Below are positions 25,631 through 34,238 of a stretch of DNA of 64,000 nucleotides, in pieces. The first letter of the stretch is position 1, and the number at the start of each line of letters is the position of its first letter. The notes under the pieces are model-generated. The model was not told where the DNA came from, made no database searches, and saw only the letters and a program-made list of their open reading frames with translations. A program made the translations under genes and the position numbers. The DNA is from Geoalkalibacter sp. (GTDB taxonomy: Bacteria > Desulfobacterota > Desulfuromonadia > Desulfuromonadales > Geoalkalibacteraceae), in NCBI RefSeq assembly GCF_030605225.1, contig NZ_JAUWAV010000002.1, forward strand, positions 71,365 through 135,364. Reading direction: 5' to 3'.

Positions 25631-28615
25631 TCAGGCCGCCTGGCCCTGGGCATGGTGCGGGCAGGCGAAGTGCTCGCCGGCGATGTAGCCGTGCTCGGGG
25701 CAGATGGTGAAGGTCGGCGTGATGGTGAAATAGGGCAGATGGAAATTCTCCGCGATGCGCCGCGCCAGCAGCCGCGCGCTCTGCCAGTCCTCGAGGCGCT
25801 CGCCGAGAAAGCCGTGGAATACGGTGCCGCCGGTGTAGCGGGTCTGCAATTGATCTTGGTGGCGCAGAGCCTGGAAGATGTCGTCGGTGCTGCCCACGGG
25901 CAGCTGCGTGCTGTTGGTGTAGTAGGGCTGCTCGTGGCCGGCGGCGATCAGCTCGGGATAGCGCTCGCGGTCGGCGCGGGCCAGGCGAAAGCTCGTGCCC
26001 TCGCCGGGGGTGGCCTCCAGATTGTAGAGATGGCCGGTTTCTTCCTGATAGGCTTCGAGCTTGGCGCGCATGAATTCGAGGGTGTCCTTCGCCAGGGCGA
26101 GGCCGCCCGGCGTGGTGATGTCGCGGCCGATGAGGTTGAGGCAGGCCTCGTTCATGCCGATCAGACCGATGGTGGAGAAGTGGTTGTCCCAGAAATTTCC
26201 CGAGCGCTCCTTGATGCCCTGGAGATAAAAGCGGCTGTAGGGATAAAGGCCGTGCTCGGTGAAGCGCTCAAGCTGCTTGCGCTTGATCTCCAGCGAATCG
26301 CGGGCGATGTCCATGAGCTCGGCGATGCGCGCGAAAAAGGCCTCCTTGGAGTCGGCCAGATAGGCGGCGCGCGGCAGGTTGAGAGTGACCACGCCGATGG
26401 AGCCGGTCAGGGGATTGCTGCCGAACAGCCCGCCGCCGCGCCGGCGCAGTTCGCGGTTGTCGAGGCGCAGGCGGCAGTTGTGGGTGACCAGGCCATTGGC
26501 CAGCTGAAAAAGGCGCTCCGCGGAATCAACGGCGACACAGAACACCAGGTCTTTGAAATCGTCCATCTTGCGGATGGCGCGGACCGGAAACCAGTAGTAG
26601 CCGTCCTCAAGGAAAAAATGTTCGCCGTAGGAAGAACGCGAATGAAACTTCAGGGTGTAAACCGGATTTTCTCCCAGGCGGTTGTCCCGTTCATCTCCGT
26701 TGCGGTCAATCAGGTAGGCTTTGCCGAGCATGCCGCAGATGGCGGCGAAATCTTCCCGGATGCTCGGGTTGACCGTGTAGATGCGGCCGCGGTTGCCGCC
26801 ATCCGTCGCGTACCATCCGGCAAGAAGTCCTTCAAGAAACTTGCTCCCCAGCTGAAAAGCCCAGGCCGTCAATCGCTTCTCATGGGCCGAGCGCCCGCTG
26901 ACGAATTGCGCCATCCAGGCTTCGGCCGATCCATTGCTGCCGCGCACCAGGTGAAAAACGACACCACGGGTTTCTTGGCTGGAAGAGACCTTGAAGCCCA
27001 GGCTTTCAAAGAAGGATCTCAGCCGTCGGGCGACTTTTTCCTCCTTTTCACCTGAATTCAAGGAGTAGACCAGGCTGCCTTTTCCGTCATGGCTGCCGTC
27101 CCCCAGGAAGGCGCCGACCGCGAAACCGGCCTCCTGATTGTCCAGCGTTTCCGCAAGGGGGGTGGCGTTGAAGGGCAGGTAAAATCCTTCCTCGATGCGG
27201 TCGGCGGTCAGAATCTCCACAGGGCGGCCTTTTCCCCGCTTGACCGGTTGTTCGTGCCGCAAATCCATGGTCACGGCTTCGCCGTTGCCGAGGGCGAATT
27301 CAAGGCAGCCCACCGATGGCGTGGCGACCGGCCGCGCCGCGACCCAGGTGCCGTTATGGAGGACTTCATAGGCCGTGCCTTTTTGCTCGTGGGTATAGTA
27401 AACATCTTTGATGGTGCGCAAATGGATCCCCCGGCCCGCGCGAACAACAATCTTGGTGTCGGGGTGAAGGGGGCACATGGAGCGCGCATCCTCGGGGCTC
27501 ATGTCCGAGTTGATGAAGTTGCTGAAATAGGGGATGCCGTATTTGGCGGTCATCTCCCAGATGGGCTGAAAGCGCGGGCTGTCCCAGTCGAGCTCGCGGG
27601 TCAGGTTGTAGGTGGGGATGGGAAAGGAGAAGATGCGCCCCGAGGCATCGCCCGCCATCATCACCTCGCAGAAGGCGCGGTTGAAGAGATCCATCTCCTC
27701 CTGAAATTCGCCGTAGCAGGCCTCCATCAGTTGCCCACCGATGATCACCGCCTCGGGGGCCAGGGTCGAGGGCGGGGTCATGTCGAGGGTGATGTTGGTG
27801 AAGGGCGTCTGGAAGCCGACGCGGGTCGGCACGTTCATGTTGAAGATGAACTCCTGCATGGCCTGCTTGACCTCGGCGTAGCCCAGGCCGTCGAAGCGGA
27901 TGAAGGGGGCGAGCAGGGTGTCGAAATTGGCGAAGGCCTGGGCGCCGGCGGCTTCGCCCTGCAGGGTGTAGAAAAAGTTCACCACCTGGCCCAGGGCCGT
28001 GCGGAAATGCTTGGGCGGGCCGCTCTGCACCTTGCCGTAGGCGCCGGTGAAGCCCTTGAGCAGCACCTCCTTGAGATCCCAGCCGCAGCAGTAGACCGAG
28101 AGCATGCCCAGATCGTGCAGATGATAGTCGGCGTCGCGATGGGGCGCGGCGATGTACTCGGGATAAATTTTGTTGAGCCAGTAGTTGCTGGTGATGTTGC
28201 TGGCGATGTGGTTGTTGAGGCCCTGCAGGGAGTAGCCCATGTTGGCGTTCTCGTTGACCCGCCAGTCCTCCTGGGCGAGGTAGGAATCGATGCTTTCGAT
28301 GGCCTCGCGCATGAACTCGCGGGTGCTGCGCAGGCTCTCGTGCTGCTTGCGGTAGAGGATGTAGGCCTTGGCCACCTTGGCGTGGCCGTTTTCGATGAGG
28401 ATCTTTTCCACCAGATCCTGCACGTTCTCCACCGTGGGGATGCGCTCGTCCTTGTAAATCACTTCGAGGATGCCCACCACCTGACGGGCGATCCCCGCGG
28501 CGCGCTCCATGTCGCTGCCGCCCACGGCGCGCACCGCCTTCTGGATGGCTTGGGTGATTTTGCCTTCCTCGAAGGACACCAGGCGGCCGTCGCGCTTGCG
28601 AATGAATGTGAGCAT
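25631..28615 (-). CDS. nrdD: Anaerobic ribonucleoside-triphosphate reductase NrdD, intein-containing precursor
   Basis: A 994-residue precursor starting at 28615 (GAGGGAGAGTCAAG upstream). Residues 1-90 form an ATP cone (FIRKRDGRLVSFEEGKITQAI), the allosteric site. The reductase barrel is interrupted after Cys381 by a 332-residue intein (382-713); the ligated product would be about 662 residues and would read RSMCCRLRLDNRELRRRGGG. The Cys after the intein corresponds to the thiyl-radical cysteine. The C-terminus has the zinc-site half TICPEHGYIAG and CPHH. The glycyl-radical motif is missing and lies in the next small gene. Reduces NTPs to dNTPs without oxygen. Confidence 0.93.
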   Translation of the reverse strand: MLTFIRKRDGRLVSFEEGKITQAIQKAVRAVGGSDMERAAGIARQVVGILEVIYKDERIPTVENVQDLVEKILIENGHAKVAKAYILYRKQHESLRSTREFMREAIESIDSYLAQEDWRVNENANMGYSLQGLNNHIASNITSNYWLNKIYPEYIAAPHRDADYHLHDLGMLSVYCCGWDLKEVLLKGFTGAYGKVQSGPPKHFRTALGQVVNFFYTLQGEAAGAQAFANFDTLLAPFIRFDGLGYAEVKQAMQEFIFNMNVPTRVGFQTPFTNITLDMTPPSTLAPEAVIIGGQLMEACYGEFQEEMDLFNRAFCEVMMAGDASGRIFSFPIPTYNLTRELDWDSPRFQPIWEMTAKYGIPYFSNFINSDMSPEDARSMCPLHPDTKIVVRAGRGIHLRTIKDVYYTHEQKGTAYEVLHNGTWVAARPVATPSVGCLEFALGNGEAVTMDLRHEQPVKRGKGRPVEILTADRIEEGFYLPFNATPLAETLDNQEAGFAVGAFLGDGSHDGKGSLVYSLNSGEKEEKVARRLRSFFESLGFKVSSSQETRGVVFHLVRGSNGSAEAWMAQFVSGRSAHEKRLTAWAFQLGSKFLEGLLAGWYATDGGNRGRIYTVNPSIREDFAAICGMLGKAYLIDRNGDERDNRLGENPVYTLKFHSRSSYGEHFFLEDGYYWFPVRAIRKMDDFKDLVFCVAVDSAERLFQLANGLVTHNCRLRLDNRELRRRGGGLFGSNPLTGSIGVVTLNLPRAAYLADSKEAFFARIAELMDIARDSLEIKRKQLERFTEHGLYPYSRFYLQGIKERSGNFWDNHFSTIGLIGMNEACLNLIGRDITTPGGLALAKDTLEFMRAKLEAYQEETGHLYNLEATPGEGTSFRLARADRERYPELIAAGHEQPYYTNSTQLPVGSTDDIFQALRHQDQLQTRYTGGTVFHGFLGERLEDWQSARLLARRIAENFHLPYFTITPTFTICPEHGYIAGEHFACPHHAQGQAA
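26477..27472 (-). other. Intein with LAGLIDADG endonuclease domain, probably class 3 (starts with Pro)
   Basis: Codons 382-713 of nrdD, 332 residues. N-terminal block PLHPDTKIVV, C-terminal block F/G LVFCVAVDS...LFQLANGLVTHN, then +1 Cys. Placing the junctions at SMC/PLHP and THN/CRLR restores the host sequence SMCCRLRLD. The intein then begins with Pro rather than Cys or Ser, while block F position 4 is Cys (canonical Asp) and the residue before the penultimate His is Thr. These are class 3 intein marks. The third mark, a Trp in block B, is not evident (RHEQPV). Endonuclease motifs AGFAVGAFLGDGS and LAGWYATDGGN keep their acidic residues, so homing may still be active. Confidence 0.85.
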
Positions 28616-28750
28616 CTTGACTCTCCCTCGTCGGACTTGCGGCGGCGCGCTTCGCTCGCGGCACCGTCTGGACAACGGGGAGAATTTAGCACACGTCATA
28701 CCTGAGTCAAGGCAAAAATCCCAAGATGTAGATTAGGAAAAACCTCCATG

Positions 28751-28906: not shown

Positions 28907-29326
28907 ATGTCTGAAACCATCCGCTTCGGCATTTCCATCGACGATCGTCTGTTGCAGCGCTTCGATGCGCTTATCGCCGACAAGGGCTACAGCAACCGTT
29001 CCGAGGCCATCCGCGATCTCATCCGCAACGCCCTGGTCGAACAGCAATGGGCGGATGCGGACCAGGAAACCGTGGGCACCGTGACCCTGGTCTACGATCA
29101 TCACACCCGCGATCTCGCCGACAAACTCACCGAGCAGCAGCATAGCCATCACGACGCCATCATCTCCGCCCTGCATGTGCATCTCGATGCCCATCACTGT
29201 CTGGAGGTGGTGGTGGTCAAGGGCAAATCCCGCGAGGTGCGGCGCCTGGCCGATGAGCTCATCGGCACCAAGGGCGTCAAGCACGGCAAGCTGGTGACGA
29301 CCACCACCGGCCGGGATTTGGTGTAA
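28907..29326 (+). CDS. nikR: Nickel-responsive transcriptional regulator NikR
   Basis: A 139-residue ribbon-helix-helix repressor. The N-terminal DNA-binding domain ([20 protein letters not shown] ... [15 protein letters not shown]) is followed by the ACT-like nickel domain. The square-planar nickel ligands seen in E. coli NikR are all present here as His79, His90, His92 and Cys98 ([13 protein letters not shown]). A GGAGG ribosome site precedes the ATG. Nickel transport or hydrogenase targets are outside the window. A terminator follows. Confidence 0.95.
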
Positions 29327-29396: not shown

Positions 29397-30629
29397 TCAT
29401 CGGCCCGGTTTGATGAGGCCGGCCTTGGTGGGTTTTTTGTCTTTTTTGTCCTTTTTGTCGCGTCCGGGCGCGGTGCCGCCAAGGCCCAGGGCGGCCGCCG
29501 CGTCGACCCGCCCATAGCCGAAATACAGGTCGTGTCCGTTGCTGCCCAGATCGACGGCGCTCTGGCGCAGGCGCAGGCGCACCTCGTCGTTGATGCGGCC
29601 GTTGCCGTTGGCGTCCTGGATGCCGGCGGCCATGAGCAGCGCCGCGACGCCCGCGACATGGGGCGCGGCCTGGGAGGTGCCGTCGAGACTGCGGTACTGG
29701 TTGCCGCGCGCCGCCGAAACGATGCTCCTGCCGGGCGCGGCGAGTTCGACCCGCCCGTCGATGGCGGAAAAAGCCGCGAACTGATCGCTCGCGTCGGTGG
29801 CGTTGACGGCGATGACCGACTCGTAGGCGGCGGGGAATTGGACCGTGCCGCCGCCGGTGTTGCCCGCCGCGGCCACCAGCAGGATGCCTGCCGCGTAGGC
29901 GCGGTCGCAGGCGTCGCGGATCGCGGGCGAATCGAGATCAAAGGCGAGGCTCAGGTTGATGATGTGCATCTGGTTGGCGATGGCCCAGTCGATGCCCTGC
30001 AGCAGCCACGCCAGGGACCCAAACCCCGCGCCGTCCAGCACCTTGACGCCGTAGATGCGCGCCCGCGGCGCGACGCCCACCACGCCCTGACCGTTGAGTT
30101 CGGCGGCGATGATGCCGGCGGCGTGGGTGCCGTGGCTGTTGGTGTTGTCGTCCATGGGATCGGCGTCGTCGAAGACGAAGTCATAGCCGCCGGCATAGCG
30201 CAGCATCAGATCCGGATGGGTATAGTCGATGCCCGTGTCGAGCACGGCGACGCGCACCTCCTGCCCGAATTTCCCCGCCTCATGGGCGATGCGCCCGCCG
30301 ATTTTGGTCACGCCCCAACTGGTGTCGTACTCAGCGCCGAACATCGGGGCGATGGCCTGAAACCGCACATTTTCCTGAACATAAGCCACCCCCGGGTCCT
30401 CGCGCAGGGCGTTCGCCTCGGCCTCGTCGAGGACGACGCTGATCACCGGCAGGCGACGCATGGATTTCTTGAGCTTGCGTTTCTGCTCCAGGGAGGCGGC
30501 TTTTTCCGCGGCAAGCCCGGCATCGTGAAAGCCGACCAGGTATTCCCGGGCGGGGGCGGCCGCGCTTGTTTCGGCCCCGGACAGCAAGAAAAGGGTCAGG
30601 GCGGCAAGGATCAGCGAAAGGCTTTTCAT
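29397..30629 (-). CDS. Secreted subtilisin-like protease, candidate OzpA (OmcZ-processing protease)
   Basis: A 410-residue S8 peptidase starting at 30629. Signal peptide (1-24), I9-type propeptide (about 28-92), then the catalytic domain with Asp131 (VLDTGIDYTHPD), His167 (NSHGTHAAG), Asn257 (AAAGNTGG) and Ser319 (DGTSQAAPHVAG). A calcium-type loop DANGNGRINDE lies at 339-349. The tail is Lys/Asp-rich (DKKDKKDKK) and ends KPGR. It follows the octahaem cytochrome gene on the same strand. In Geobacter sulfurreducens the subtilase OzpA, encoded just after omcZ, cleaves OmcZ to its filament-forming short form. The order here is the same, though a terminator hairpin separates the two genes. Confidence 0.85.
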   Translation of the reverse strand: MKSLSLILAALTLFLLSGAETSAAAPAREYLVGFHDAGLAAEKAASLEQKRKLKKSMRRLPVISVVLDEAEANALREDPGVAYVQENVRFQAIAPMFGAEYDTSWGVTKIGGRIAHEAGKFGQEVRVAVLDTGIDYTHPDLMLRYAGGYDFVFDDADPMDDNTNSHGTHAAGIIAAELNGQGVVGVAPRARIYGVKVLDGAGFGSLAWLLQGIDWAIANQMHIINLSLAFDLDSPAIRDACDRAYAAGILLVAAAGNTGGGTVQFPAAYESVIAVNATDASDQFAAFSAIDGRVELAAPGRSIVSAARGNQYRSLDGTSQAAPHVAGVAALLMAAGIQDANGNGRINDEVRLRLRQSAVDLGSNGHDLYFGYGRVDAAAALGLGGTAPGRDKKDKKDKKPTKAGLIKPGR

Positions 30630-30684
30630 GGTCGAATCGGAACTCCCGCGAAGAGTTGGTGCTCCTGAGGCCGTGCATTGCATG

Positions 30685-30762: not shown

Positions 30763-32406
30763 TTAGCGCCCTTTTTTCACTTCGTTCTTTTTCGGCGGCG
30801 CGGGCGCGGGTGCGGGCGGGGTCTTGTCCTTGCCGCCCTTGCCGCCCTTGACGGGTTCCTCGACAACCGGGGGCGCCACGGCGCCGGTCAGCTGCGCCGA
30901 GACCACGTAGGTGGAGAGGACCTCGACGGTCTGGCCGGCCTTGGCGCCGGCGGCCTTCACCACGATCTGGCCGTCATTCCAGGTGATCACGTCGGCCGGA
31001 GCGTTGCCGACGTTGACGCCGAGACCCTGGGCCTGGGGCGGCTGCATGCCGAAGCCCTTGCCCTGGATAACGATGCTGCCGTCGGCCTTGAGGTCGGCGG
31101 AGGCGATGGCGACAGCCGGCTTGACCACGAGGCTTTCGGGGTTGGACAGTTTGTCGAGTTTCTTCGCCACCACGGTGTAGTTGCCGACGGGCAGGTTGGC
31201 GGGAACGGCCACCTTGATGCTGTTGGGGGTGACGTTCAGGGGCGCCAGCTCAACGCTGTTGCCGGCGGCGTCGCTCAGCACCACCACCGAGCTGTACTCC
31301 ACGGCGGGGATGCCGGCCATGGGCGAGTAGCTGTTGACGAAGTTGATGCCGACCAGTTCGACGATGGTCTCCTCGCCGGCGATGACGACGTTCTTGGTCA
31401 TGCCGTCGATCTGCGGGGTGACGGGGCCGGCCATGGGCGCGACGGACTGCGTCTTGGTGAAGCCGTGGCAGCCGAAGCAGTCCTGATTGTTGCCGATGTG
31501 GCCGAACCAGGGCTGCATCTGGCCGGGCTGGACGGTGGTACCGGGCGCGGCGTACTGGATGTTGTGCAGCGAGGGAATTCCGTGGCAGTTCTGGCACACG
31601 CGGATCTGCTGGGCCGTGGCAATGCTCACGGAAGGCACGCCGCCCGCGCCGGTGGTGTGGCACCAGGCGCACTTGGCCGGGTCGCTGGCCAGGGTGGTGC
31701 TGTGATGGGTGTCGGCCGGGCTGTAGACCAGAATGCCGCTCGCCGGATCAACGGCGGGCGTCTGGCCGGGCCAGGGGTTGTTCGGCGCATGGGACGAGGC
31801 ATGGCAATAGTAGCAGGAGCCTTCCCCGTTGGGGCCGGCGTTGGTCTTGCGGCTCGCCCAGGGGGTGATCTGGCTGGGCGCGTAGGTCGGCAGCCACTTG
31901 GGCACGGTACCGCTGACGCCGGGGCGGGTCTCACGGTTCGCCGGCAGCAGGCCGTTGTCCACAAAGGAGCCGTGGCAGCTCACGCAGTCGCCGGTGACCG
32001 CCTGCTGGGTGGTGTGGTGCGGGGAGCCGCCGGTGTGGCAGAAGTTGCAGTCGCGGAAGGTCCGGAACTGAAAGACGCCGTTGACCAGTTGCAGTTGGTG
32101 GCAGCTGGTGCACTGGTAGGTTTCGCCGGGATTGCCGAAGGGCGCGGAATTGATGGCCCCGATGGTGTCGCCGACGCGGTTGTGATGGCGATCGGGCAGG
32201 TAGGTTGTATTCACCGGCACGTTCGCGGGCGGGTTGGAGCCGTGGCAGACGCGGCAGTCGGCTTCGGTCACGGCGTTGAACACCGTGTCGGGAATGCCGA
32301 GAAGCTGGTTGACGGGGGGCGCCGGAACGGCGGCGTGGGCGGTGGCGACCAGGCCCAGACCCAGCAGGGCGGCGCAGGCCAGAAATTTGATCGTGCGTTT
32401 TTGCAT
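30763..32406 (-). CDS. omcZ: Octahaem c-type cytochrome with C-terminal IPT/TIG-like domains, OmcZ family
   Basis: A 547-residue exported cytochrome. Signal peptide to about residue 26, then VPAPPVNQLLGIPDTVFNAVTEADC. Eight CxxCH haem motifs at Cys 51, 99, 120, 141, 198, 246, 271 and 310, all in the first 315 residues. Free histidines such as HH74-75, HH130-131 and HH234-235 could be distal ligands. Residues about 330-505 are two beta-sandwich IPT/TIG-like domains, and the tail is Lys/Pro/Gly-rich (KGGKGGKDK ... KKGR). Known OmcZ is octahaem, is cut to a short haem-bearing form and polymerises into conductive filaments. The flanking isomerase and subtilase genes match that locus. Expression appears controlled by the riboswitch at 32.6-32.7 kb. 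Confidence 0.88.
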   Translation of the reverse strand: MQKRTIKFLACAALLGLGLVATAHAAVPAPPVNQLLGIPDTVFNAVTEADCRVCHGSNPPANVPVNTTYLPDRHHNRVGDTIGAINSAPFGNPGETYQCTSCHQLQLVNGVFQFRTFRDCNFCHTGGSPHHTTQQAVTGDCVSCHGSFVDNGLLPANRETRPGVSGTVPKWLPTYAPSQITPWASRKTNAGPNGEGSCYYCHASSHAPNNPWPGQTPAVDPASGILVYSPADTHHSTTLASDPAKCAWCHTTGAGGVPSVSIATAQQIRVCQNCHGIPSLHNIQYAAPGTTVQPGQMQPWFGHIGNNQDCFGCHGFTKTQSVAPMAGPVTPQIDGMTKNVVIAGEETIVELVGINFVNSYSPMAGIPAVEYSSVVVLSDAAGNSVELAPLNVTPNSIKVAVPANLPVGNYTVVAKKLDKLSNPESLVVKPAVAIASADLKADGSIVIQGKGFGMQPPQAQGLGVNVGNAPADVITWNDGQIVVKAAGAKAGQTVEVLSTYVVSAQLTGAVAPPVVEEPVKGGKGGKDKTPPAPAPAPPKKNEVKKGR

Positions 32407-32615
32407 ACCCTTTACTCCCTTTAGTCCTTGGTGAAAGCTTTGTTGAAAACAACGATAAGAAAAAATTACAACCGAACGTCAATCAATGGCATGGCAGAAC
32501 TCGGGACACGTCCCGACATCCAAATGGCGACCTCGTGCGTTGCTCACCCCCTTTCACTGAATTTGCCCTGTACTGCTTGATCCTTCCTGCGGCATGGGAA
32601 TCGAATACATGCAAC

Positions 32616-32653
32616 AAAAAACCGGATTGCCCTGCATCGCTCTGGGGCAACCC
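32616..32653 (-). terminator. Riboswitch expression-platform terminator
   Basis: GGGTTGCCC pairs with GGGCAATCC, one mismatch, across a 12-nt loop, followed by six T. Its first strand is shared with the aptamer, making the two folds mutually exclusive. Confidence 0.8.
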
Positions 32654-32739
32654 GGCTGTCTGCTTGAGACCCGTGGCTTTCCGTCCCCACCTCGCGATGG
32701 GTTTGGCTTTATGTGGTTTTGCGCGTGCGCGGGCAAAAC
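32616..32739 (-). promoter_or_regulatory. GEMM-I riboswitch (cyclic di-GMP or 3',3'-cGAMP) upstream of the octahaem cytochrome
   Basis: Read on the minus strand. A 5' hairpin GTTTTGC/GCAAAAC is followed by the aptamer (about 32716-32645): CCAAACC, the P2 stem CCCATC-GCGA-GGTGGG with a GNRA tetraloop, GGACGGAAAGCC, the P3 stem GTCT-CAAGC-AGAC, then AGCCGGGTTGCC. This closely follows the Geobacter GEMM-I layout. The nucleotide aligned with Vc2 position 20, which distinguishes ligands, is G (complement of 32707), predicting c-di-GMP rather than cGAMP. The last aptamer strand, GGGTTGCCC, is also the first half of a terminator, so ligand binding should switch expression on. Confidence 0.85.
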
Positions 32740-32745
32740 AGCACA

Positions 32746-32775
32746 AGTATCCTTCGTCTTGCAGCCAATTGTCAA
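32746..32775 (-). promoter_or_regulatory. Sigma-70 promoter for the riboswitch-cytochrome transcript
   Basis: Minus strand TTGACA (32775-32770), an 18-bp spacer, and GATACT (32751-32746). The predicted start near 32739 would place the riboswitch at the very 5' end of the mRNA. Confidence 0.65.
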
Positions 32776-32809: not shown

Positions 32810-33847
32810 TCAGCGCTCGCCGCGCTCGAGGATGGAGGGGCGCGCTTCGCCGGGGCTTTCCGGCAGCAGAATTTCAATCCGTGCCTGGGCGCGCAGCGCG
32901 GCGATTTCCTGAGCGAGCCGTTCCTCGCGAAGCTGCTTCTGTAAAAAGCGATGGAGAAAGTCTCGCATTTGCTCGTAGCTCGGCACTCCGCCCTCATGCC
33001 GATCCTGGACCTCGAGCACGTGGAAGCCGAAGGGGGTCTGCACGATGGGGCTGATCTCTCCCGGCGGCAGGCTGAAAGCGAGCTGGTCGAAGGCCTGCGG
33101 CATATAGCCGGGTTCGATGCGCCCCAGTTCGCCGTCGTGGGCGGCGCTGGCGCAATCGGACAGCTCCCTGGCCACCTGCGCGAAGTCCTCGCCGGCCAGC
33201 AACCGCCGGCGCGCTTCCTCGGCGCGTCCCCGCGCGGTCTTGAGTTCCTCGGCGTCGGCCTCCGGGGCGACTTCGACCAGCACGTGCCGCACCTCCGCCG
33301 AGGGCCCTCCCGCGAAGCTGTGCTTGCCCTGCTCGTAAAGTTCGCGGATCCGCTCCTCGGGAACCTCGGGCTCGCCCAGCTTGCGGTGCAGGTAGTAGGC
33401 ATCCACGTACACCTGGCGCTCGGCGGCGCTGCGCATCTGCTCCTCGCTCAGGGCGACGCGGCCGCGCTCGCCCCGTTCGCGGTACTGCCGGACGTAGAAT
33501 GCGATCTTGTTCTCCAGATCGGGCACGTCGAGCTGTCGGCCGGCCTGGTGGAGCAATTCCACGTCGATGATCTGATCGAGAGCCCGGCGCCGCAGATGAT
33601 CGAGTTGTTTCTCGCCGCTGCGTTGCCCGGTGACGCCGCGGCCGCCCCGTATCTGGCTCTCCACCAGCGAATCGAGCTGATCCAGGTAGATGGGCTCGCC
33701 GTTGACCCGCGCCGCCAGGGCGCGCTCCCCCTCCGCGGCATAAATCCCGGTCGCGGTCAGGGCCAGCAGAAGCATGGTCAGATAAACTGTCAAAGAACCG
33801 ATGCCCAGAAGGCCGCGTTTGGTTGGCGTTGCTGAAGTCATCCTCAT
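32810..33847 (-). CDS. Periplasmic parvulin-type peptidyl-prolyl isomerase (SurA/PpiC-like)
   Basis: About 345 residues from the ATG at 33847 (33841 is an alternative). A membrane segment or signal (LTVYLTMLLLALTATGIYA) is followed by a SurA-type N-terminal helical domain (AARVNGEPIYLDQLDSLVESQ ...) and a PpiC rotamase domain at about 190-290, with RHVLVEV, GELGRIEPGYMPQAFDQLAFSLPPGEIS and TPFGFHVLEV. It probably helps fold exported proteins. In Geobacter, PpiC-type isomerases lie directly upstream of omcZ and other outer-surface cytochromes, as here. It has its own transcript, because a separate promoter follows for the cytochrome. Confidence 0.9.
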   Translation of the reverse strand: MRMTSATPTKRGLLGIGSLTVYLTMLLLALTATGIYAAEGERALAARVNGEPIYLDQLDSLVESQIRGGRGVTGQRSGEKQLDHLRRRALDQIIDVELLHQAGRQLDVPDLENKIAFYVRQYRERGERGRVALSEEQMRSAAERQVYVDAYYLHRKLGEPEVPEERIRELYEQGKHSFAGGPSAEVRHVLVEVAPEADAEELKTARGRAEEARRRLLAGEDFAQVARELSDCASAAHDGELGRIEPGYMPQAFDQLAFSLPPGEISPIVQTPFGFHVLEVQDRHEGGVPSYEQMRDFLHRFLQKQLREERLAQEIAALRAQARIEILLPESPGEARPSILERGER

Positions 33848-34238
33848 TTTTTTCGGCGTTGCCTTTTCGGGTAAAGGGACCCCTTGGGGTCTTGCGTTTT
33901 GGACTATGAATTTAATGTGCCAGGCGGAAACTCGCAAGCGGGGTGCCCTCGGCTTGCCCTGTTTGAATGCGGATTTTGTCGAGAGACATTAATGACGCTC
34001 GTTCGGATGCCGAAAGTCGCATGTCAATAAAAAAAGAGTAAATTTAACGGGTTTCTTCCTGCGAGCCGCCTTTTTTTATGCGGGAAGTCTTTGGAAAAAC
34101 GGCCAGAAAATAATTTTTTCTCGCTAATGTTATTTTTTTTCAATCGACTCGCGGCCCCTTGGGCTGGCGTTTGATTTTTTTGGACCTGTCGCCAAAAGGC
34201 GAAATCGGTGACGGCAAATGGCGCCCTCCCCGGTCGCC
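33848..34238. other. 391-bp AT-rich intergenic region upstream of the isomerase gene
   Basis: Markedly more AT-rich than its neighbours, with several A and T runs. On the minus strand there is a TTGACA at 34027-34022 without a convincing -10, a TCGCCTTTTGGCGA hairpin near 34.2 kb that could end the upstream cytochrome transcript, and a short palindrome, GGGACCCCTTGGGGTC, nearer the gene. I found no second GEMM aptamer and no ORF I can support. Confidence 0.5.

What the first reader, a model, noticed from the sequence alone, without database searches (positions are those of the whole stretch)
32616..32775. Promoter plus GEMM-I riboswitch with a mutually exclusive terminator in front of the octahaem cytochrome
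A TTGACA/GATACT promoter is followed directly by a full GEMM-I aptamer, including the GCGA tetraloop stem and GGACGGAAAGCC core. Its last strand also forms the 5' half of a terminator with six T. This predicts an ON switch: cyclic dinucleotide blocks termination and allows cytochrome expression, independently of the isomerase gene upstream.
Basis: partly seen in the sequence, partly recalled or inferred. Interest (0 to 1): 0.85.

Follow-up and report, generated by a model that had tools for sequence, protein, structure and literature searches.

The report
Riboswitch controlling a nanowire cytochrome operon
In front of a gene for a protein-wire cytochrome (an OmcZ relative) in a Geoalkalibacter bacterium sits an RNA switch that probably senses the biofilm signal c-di-GMP and then lets the gene be transcribed, which would tie the making of electrical nanowires directly to that signal.

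Summary
On the minus strand there is a TTGACA-N18-GATACT promoter, a complete GEMM-I (c-di-GMP-I) aptamer (32716-32642; 71.2 bits, E 7e-15), and an 11-bp terminator with six U whose 5' strand is the aptamer's own 3' strand. Folding of growing transcripts shows aptamer P3 giving way to the terminator as the hairpin completes. The chance of so good a terminator is about 1 in 1000, and it is conserved in relatives. This is the ON-switch layout of the studied Geobacter pilM and pgcA riboswitches.

New here: the "octahaem cytochrome" is an orthologue of OmcZ, the nanowire cytochrome, and the next gene is the OzpA-like maturation protease. The same riboswitch precedes omcZ in all four genomes of the genus searched (Geoalkalibacter) and in others of its order (11 of 23 OmcZ homologues), but in none of 15 in the Geobacter-side clade. 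G. sulfurreducens omcZ is reported to lack one. The ligand-reading base is G20, predicting c-di-GMP rather than cGAMP; one relative has A20. All ten genomes checked also encode a GacA-type cGAMP synthase, so the ligand must be measured. A known kind of riboswitch on a new target.

The parts
32746..32775 (-). Promoter: -35 TTGACA (32775-32770), 18 nt, -10 GATACT (32751-32746); start site about 32739 inferred
   Evidence: 10/12 match, only site in region; same TTGACA-17/18-GATACT before the aptamer in G001, G002, G003
32717..32739 (-). 5' hairpin GUUUUGC..GCAAAAC before the aptamer; not conserved in relatives
   Evidence: Predicted fold; absent from the G001-G003 leaders
32642..32716 (-). GEMM-I (c-di-GMP-I) riboswitch aptamer; by alignment to Vc2 numbering G20 = 32707, A47 = 32680, C92 = 32647
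   Evidence: RF03167 71.2 bits E 7.1e-15; RF01051 64.8 bits; covariation in P2 and P1
32645..32656 (-). Switching strand GCCGGGUUGCCC: 3' half of aptamer P3/P1 and 5' half of the terminator
   Evidence: 9 of 12 bases paired in both folds
32616..32632 (-). Terminator 3' strand GGGCAAUCCGG and U6 tract
   Evidence: 97% of cells paired over 12 homologous copies; 1/1000 shuffles as good
32544..32554 (-). Shine-Dalgarno-like AAAGGGGGTGA in the leader, 147 nt before the omcZ start, no start codon behind it
   Evidence: Conserved in 21 of 32 omcZ-type leaders, with or without riboswitch
30763..32406 (-). OmcZ orthologue: secreted octahaem cytochrome with C-terminal IPT/TIG domain, 547 aa, 8 CXXCH
   Evidence: PDB 8d9m E 6.4e-60, 7lq5 E 3.5e-31; Pfam c3/c7/TIG; 8 CXXCH
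29397..30683 (-). S8 subtilase, OzpA-like, about 80 bp downstream of omcZ, probably co-transcribed
   Evidence: PF00082 E 8e-57; homologue follows omcZ in most relatives, including the Geobacter side
32810..33937 (-). Upstream PpiC-type peptidyl-prolyl isomerase gene (start codon uncertain)
   Evidence: PF00639 E 3.6e-24; homologue upstream of omcZ in G001, G002, G003, G005, G105

Best explanation
A GEMM-I riboswitch that works as a transcriptional ON switch for an omcZ-ozpA operon. RNA polymerase starts at about 32739 and makes the aptamer first. Without ligand, the aptamer's 3' strand pairs with the downstream GGGCAAUCCGG, and the resulting hairpin with U6 stops transcription at about 32616. 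When a cyclic dinucleotide, most likely c-di-GMP, binds at G20/A47/C92 it holds P1/P3 together, the terminator cannot form, and polymerase continues into omcZ and its maturation protease. High c-di-GMP (surface life, biofilm) would thus directly raise nanowire cytochrome production. Shown by computation: promoter, aptamer, terminator, their overlap, their conservation, and the identity of the downstream gene. Inferred: ligand, direction of response, operon structure, physiology.
For: Covariance-model hits. Growing-transcript folding: P3 probability 0.84-0.90 until about nt 116, then the terminator rises to 0.99 and P3 falls to 0.01; unconstrained fold -46.5 against -39.9 kcal/mol with the aptamer enforced, a gap that ligand binding could plausibly bridge. 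Across 12 homologous copies the terminator pairs in 97.2% of cells (26.6-51.0% when the strands are slid), with double-sided changes. Terminators at or near 0 of 1000 shuffles in most relatives. Same architecture before omcZ in all four genomes of the genus plus G005, G105, G027, G028 and G123. The same mutually exclusive ON mechanism is experimentally described for G. metallireducens pilM (PMC9262584) and stated for pgcA (PMC6456294). Changing A20 to G in the Gmet_0970 GEMM-Ib riboswitch changes selectivity from cGAMP to c-di-GMP (PMC6456294); here the base is G.
Against: No binding, termination or expression data. The genome encodes a GacA-type Hypr GGDEF, so cGAMP is probably also present, and the G. 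sulfurreducens omcST riboswitch is reported sensitive to both ligands (PMC6456294). Reports on c-di-GMP and omcZ in G. sulfurreducens, where omcZ has no known riboswitch, disagree: omcZ falls in the esnD deletion, which lowers c-di-GMP, but low c-di-GMP is also cited as raising it.
Confidence: 0.78

Rival explanations
1. Same ON switch, but the physiological ligand is cGAMP, or both c-di-GMP and cGAMP, made by the GacA-type enzyme.
For: GacA orthologues with the Hypr serine in all ten genomes checked; the G123 omcZ leader has A20, the cGAMP-type base; the G. sulfurreducens omcST riboswitch is described as sensitive to both.
Against: G20 in every other omcZ-associated aptamer; A20G alone makes a GEMM-Ib aptamer c-di-GMP selective (PMC6456294).
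Confidence: 0.17
2. It belongs to the c-di-GMP-I-GGC variant (RF03167, the best-scoring model) and senses a different, unknown ligand.
For: RF03167 outscores RF01051 (71.2 against 64.8 bits).
Against: At the position equivalent to Vc2 A47 the RF03167 consensus has G while this RNA has A (alignment); G20/A47/C92 is the ordinary c-di-GMP set. That the name GGC refers to these three bases is my inference.
Confidence: 0.04
3. The hairpin is a fixed attenuator, or the switch acts in the OFF direction or on translation.
For: Cyclic-dinucleotide riboswitches of both directions with very similar aptamers exist (Cd1 OFF, pilM ON; PMC9262584).
Against: The terminator re-uses the aptamer strand, so ligand must oppose it; the overlap is conserved in relatives; the terminator ends about 210 nt before the omcZ start, far from its ribosome binding site.
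Confidence: 0.04

Closest known systems
GEMM-Ib cGAMP riboswitch before pilM of Geobacter metallireducens (PMC9262584)
   Same: ON switch; aptamer and terminator mutually exclusive, terminator built from the aptamer's own strand; decision about 100 nt into the transcript
   Different: pilM senses cGAMP; this one has G20, predicted c-di-GMP; target is omcZ instead of pilus genes
GSU1761 (pgcA) GEMM-Ib riboswitch of Geobacter sulfurreducens (PMC6456294)
   Same: Riboswitch with antitermination in front of an extracellular multihaem cytochrome
   Different: pgcA aptamer prefers cGAMP about 1200-fold; PgcA is not OmcZ
Canonical c-di-GMP-I riboswitch Vc2 (RF01051)
   Same: G20, A47, C92 ligand contacts; P2 GNRA tetraloop, P3 (Vc2 details from own knowledge)
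   Different: C-C/G-G instead of G-C/G-C at positions 21-22/45-46; sequence features that score better with RF03167
omcZ-ozpA operon of G. sulfurreducens (GSU2076-GSU2075; PMC9473688)
   Same: Octahaem cytochrome with C-terminal Ig-like domains and a subtilisin-like protease gene beside it
   Different: G. sulfurreducens omcZ is stated to lack a known riboswitch (PMC6456294); the Geobacter-side homologues tested here lack one too

Membership tests
GEMM-I / c-di-GMP-I riboswitch (clan CL00126) | Covariance-model match over the whole aptamer above the curated cut-off | tested here: met
   RF03167 71.2 bits (cut-off 59), full length; RF01051 64.8 bits (cut-off 35)
GEMM-I / c-di-GMP-I riboswitch (clan CL00126) | Conserved ligand contacts G20 (or A20), A47, C92 | tested here: met
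   G at 32707, A at 32680, C at 32647, by alignment; Vc2 numbering from own knowledge
GEMM-I / c-di-GMP-I riboswitch (clan CL00126) | Binds a cyclic dinucleotide | not testable with these tools
   Needs in-line probing or ITC
GEMM-Ib (cGAMP-selective subclass) | A at position 20 | tested here: not met
   G at position 20; A20 only in the G123 omcZ leader and in another GEMM of this genome, L002
c-di-GMP-I-GGC variant (RF03167) | G at the position equivalent to A47 (inferred from the model consensus) | tested here: not met
   A in the window (alignment)
Transcriptional ON riboswitch (antitermination) | Terminator whose 5' strand is part of the aptamer | tested here: met
   9 of 12 bases shared; folding switch; conserved
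Transcriptional ON riboswitch (antitermination) | Ligand raises read-through | not testable with these tools
   Needs a single-round transcription assay
OmcZ nanowire cytochrome | Sequence homology over haem and Ig-like regions, 8 haems, ozpA-like neighbour | tested here: met
   8d9m E 6.4e-60 over residues 10-487; 8 CXXCH; S8 protease downstream
OmcZ nanowire cytochrome | Polymerises into filaments | not testable with these tools
   Needs cryo-EM

The most novel reading that the evidence does not exclude
In bacteria of this order outside Geobacter, the OmcZ nanowire operon is wired directly to c-di-GMP by a riboswitch with a Geobacter-like backbone but the c-di-GMP base G20. At least one lineage (G123) has A20, so the same kind of omcZ switch may have changed its second messenger by a single base.
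Probability: 0.5. Interest if true: 0.62.

Novelty: new member of a known kind. Interest (0 to 1): 0.5.

Why it matters
OmcZ filaments are conductive bacterial nanowires needed for thick current-producing biofilms. How second messengers reach omcZ in G. sulfurreducens is unresolved: the operon responds to loss of both a cGAMP enzyme and a c-di-GMP enzyme but has no known riboswitch (PMC6456294). A direct riboswitch on the orthologous operon in Geoalkalibacter gives a short, testable path from c-di-GMP to nanowire production, and a natural control part for electroactive biofilms.

Tried and rejected
Presence or absence of a cGAMP synthase as a pointer to the ligand: uninformative, since all ten genomes with an omcZ riboswitch encode a GacA-type enzyme with the Hypr serine. 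Filing it as c-di-GMP-I-GGC from the best Rfam score: rejected, because that consensus has G at position 47 and the window has A. A single origin and simple inheritance of the omcZ-riboswitch pair: not supported, the tree needs about 8 changes, so repeated loss or gain. The 5' hairpin and the 32516-32501 palindrome as parts of the switch: neither is conserved in the genus. The primary PNAS 2015 paper on Geobacter GEMM-I is not held, so its list of sites could not be checked for an omcZ entry; the held papers combining OmcZ, riboswitch and c-di-GMP that I looked into do not describe one. No structure prediction was run: the PDB sequence match was sufficient.

Full report
WHAT IS THERE. All elements are on the minus strand. 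Reading 5' to 3': TTGACA (32775-32770), 18 nt, GATACT (32751-32746), a short 5' hairpin, then the aptamer 32716-32642, the terminator 3' strand 32632-32622 and six T (32621-32616). The promoter is the only sigma-70-like site in 1.8 kb (0.4 expected) and recurs at the same place in three sister genomes.

CHANCE. Given the aptamer's 3' end, 1 of 1000 dinucleotide shuffles of the 60 bases downstream provides as good a hairpin plus T run; most relatives give 0-3 of 1000, while the other three GEMM-I sites of the same genome have no such terminator. On an alignment of 12 omcZ-associated copies the terminator helix pairs in 97.2% of cells, against 26.6-51.0% when slid, with changes on both sides at two pairs. 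The weaker cases are G105 (85/1000) and the two G124 leaders (434/1000 and 31/1000); the two G124 leaders were left out of that alignment.

MECHANISM. Of the 12 bases in the terminator's 5' strand, 9 are paired in the aptamer. Folding transcripts of increasing length from the inferred start, P3 has probability 0.84-0.90 until nt 116; from nt 118 the terminator has 0.84, then 0.99, and P3 falls to 0.01. Enforcing the aptamer costs 6.6 kcal/mol against the free fold, a gap that ligand binding could plausibly bridge (inference). This is the layout experimentally worked out for the G. metallireducens pilM switch, where aptamer and terminator are mutually exclusive and ligand turns the gene on (PMC9262584), and described for pgcA (PMC6456294).

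LIGAND. By the Rfam alignment the junction bases are G20, A47 and C92 (Vc2 numbering from own knowledge). Changing A20 to G in the Gmet_0970 GEMM-Ib switch turned a cGAMP-selective aptamer c-di-GMP-selective (PMC6456294). G20 is present in every omcZ-associated aptamer examined except that of G123, which has A20. The genome has 28 GGDEF domains, one of which (L058, beside a hisS-like gene) carries serine where diguanylate cyclases have aspartate, together with a GGDEF motif, the Hypr signature of PMC6456294. All ten genomes with the arrangement have this enzyme, so genome content does not decide between ligands; c-di-GMP rests on G20 alone.

THE TARGET. The downstream protein has 8 CXXCH motifs, cytochrome c3/c7 and IPT/TIG matches, and is homologous over its haem and Ig-like regions to PDB 8d9m (E 6.4e-60) and 7lq5. 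I recognise these as full-length and mature OmcZ from own knowledge; the table calls them only 'Cytochrome c'. The next gene, about 80 bp on, is an S8 subtilase; its homologue follows omcZ in most relatives. G. sulfurreducens has the same pair, omcZ GSU2076 and ozpA GSU2075, the protease that matures OmcZ (PMC9473688). The G. ferrihydriticus genome is reported to hold an OmcZ homologue (PMC12016550). The sister genome G003 has contigs of the same lengths, with the same gene pieces, as a named Geoalkalibacter MAG, so the genus is Geoalkalibacter. The window is G000:C2:71365-135364.

DISTRIBUTION. All four genomes of the genus have it on the omcZ copy next to the isomerase gene, and not on the other omcZ paralogues found. 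G027 has two and G028 three in tandem, each with its own terminator. The leader of G. sulfurreducens omcZ is stated to lack a known riboswitch although the operon responds to both gacA and esnD deletion (PMC6456294).

VERDICT. It is a member of a known riboswitch class, using a known mode of action. What is new is the target, the OmcZ nanowire operon, with a conserved G20. Independence from the isomerase gene is plausible (own promoter) but unproven.

Noticed in passing
window 32554-32544 (-); also L012, L013, L016, L019, L020, L021, L073, L075, L077 and others: A strong Shine-Dalgarno-like AAGG(A/G)GGTGA lies 60-175 nt upstream of omcZ starts (9 or 10 of 10 bases in 21 of 32 homologues, riboswitch or not), mostly with no start codon behind it; possibly a ribosome-bound mRNA stabiliser or the remnant of a leader ORF.
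   Followed up: partly
L067, L070, L073 (Geobacter-side omcZ leaders): There the same SD-like site precedes a conserved 20-aa ORF, MKKR(A/T)Y(V/I)KPRV(I/V)GSANVHPC, in front of omcZ; a leader peptide or small peptide gene of unknown role.
   Followed up: partly
L058 682-2004 (+), G000:C24: GacA-type receiver plus Hypr GGDEF protein next to a hisS-like gene, so this species probably also makes cGAMP.
   Followed up: yes
L001, L002, L004 (G000:C30, C53, C33): The genome's other three GEMM-I sites precede a large adhesin-like protein (L001) and two secreted S8-subtilase-like proteins (L002, L004); L002 has A20, the cGAMP-type base. None has a terminator directly behind it.
   Followed up: partly
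window 32516-32501 (-): Perfect palindrome TCGGGACGTGTCCCGA in the omcZ leader, found only in this genome; a similar inverted repeat in G003 (CCGGATTTTTCCGG).
   Followed up: partly
L019, L020 (G027, G028): Two and three GEMM-I units in tandem before omcZ, each with its own overlapping terminator, which would make a steeper (AND-like) response.
   Followed up: partly
window 25631-28699 (-): Anaerobic ribonucleotide reductase NrdD interrupted by what looks like an intein (a long insert, the NRDD match falls in two stretches); a NikR-like regulator gene lies beside it at 28907-29326 (+).
   Followed up: no
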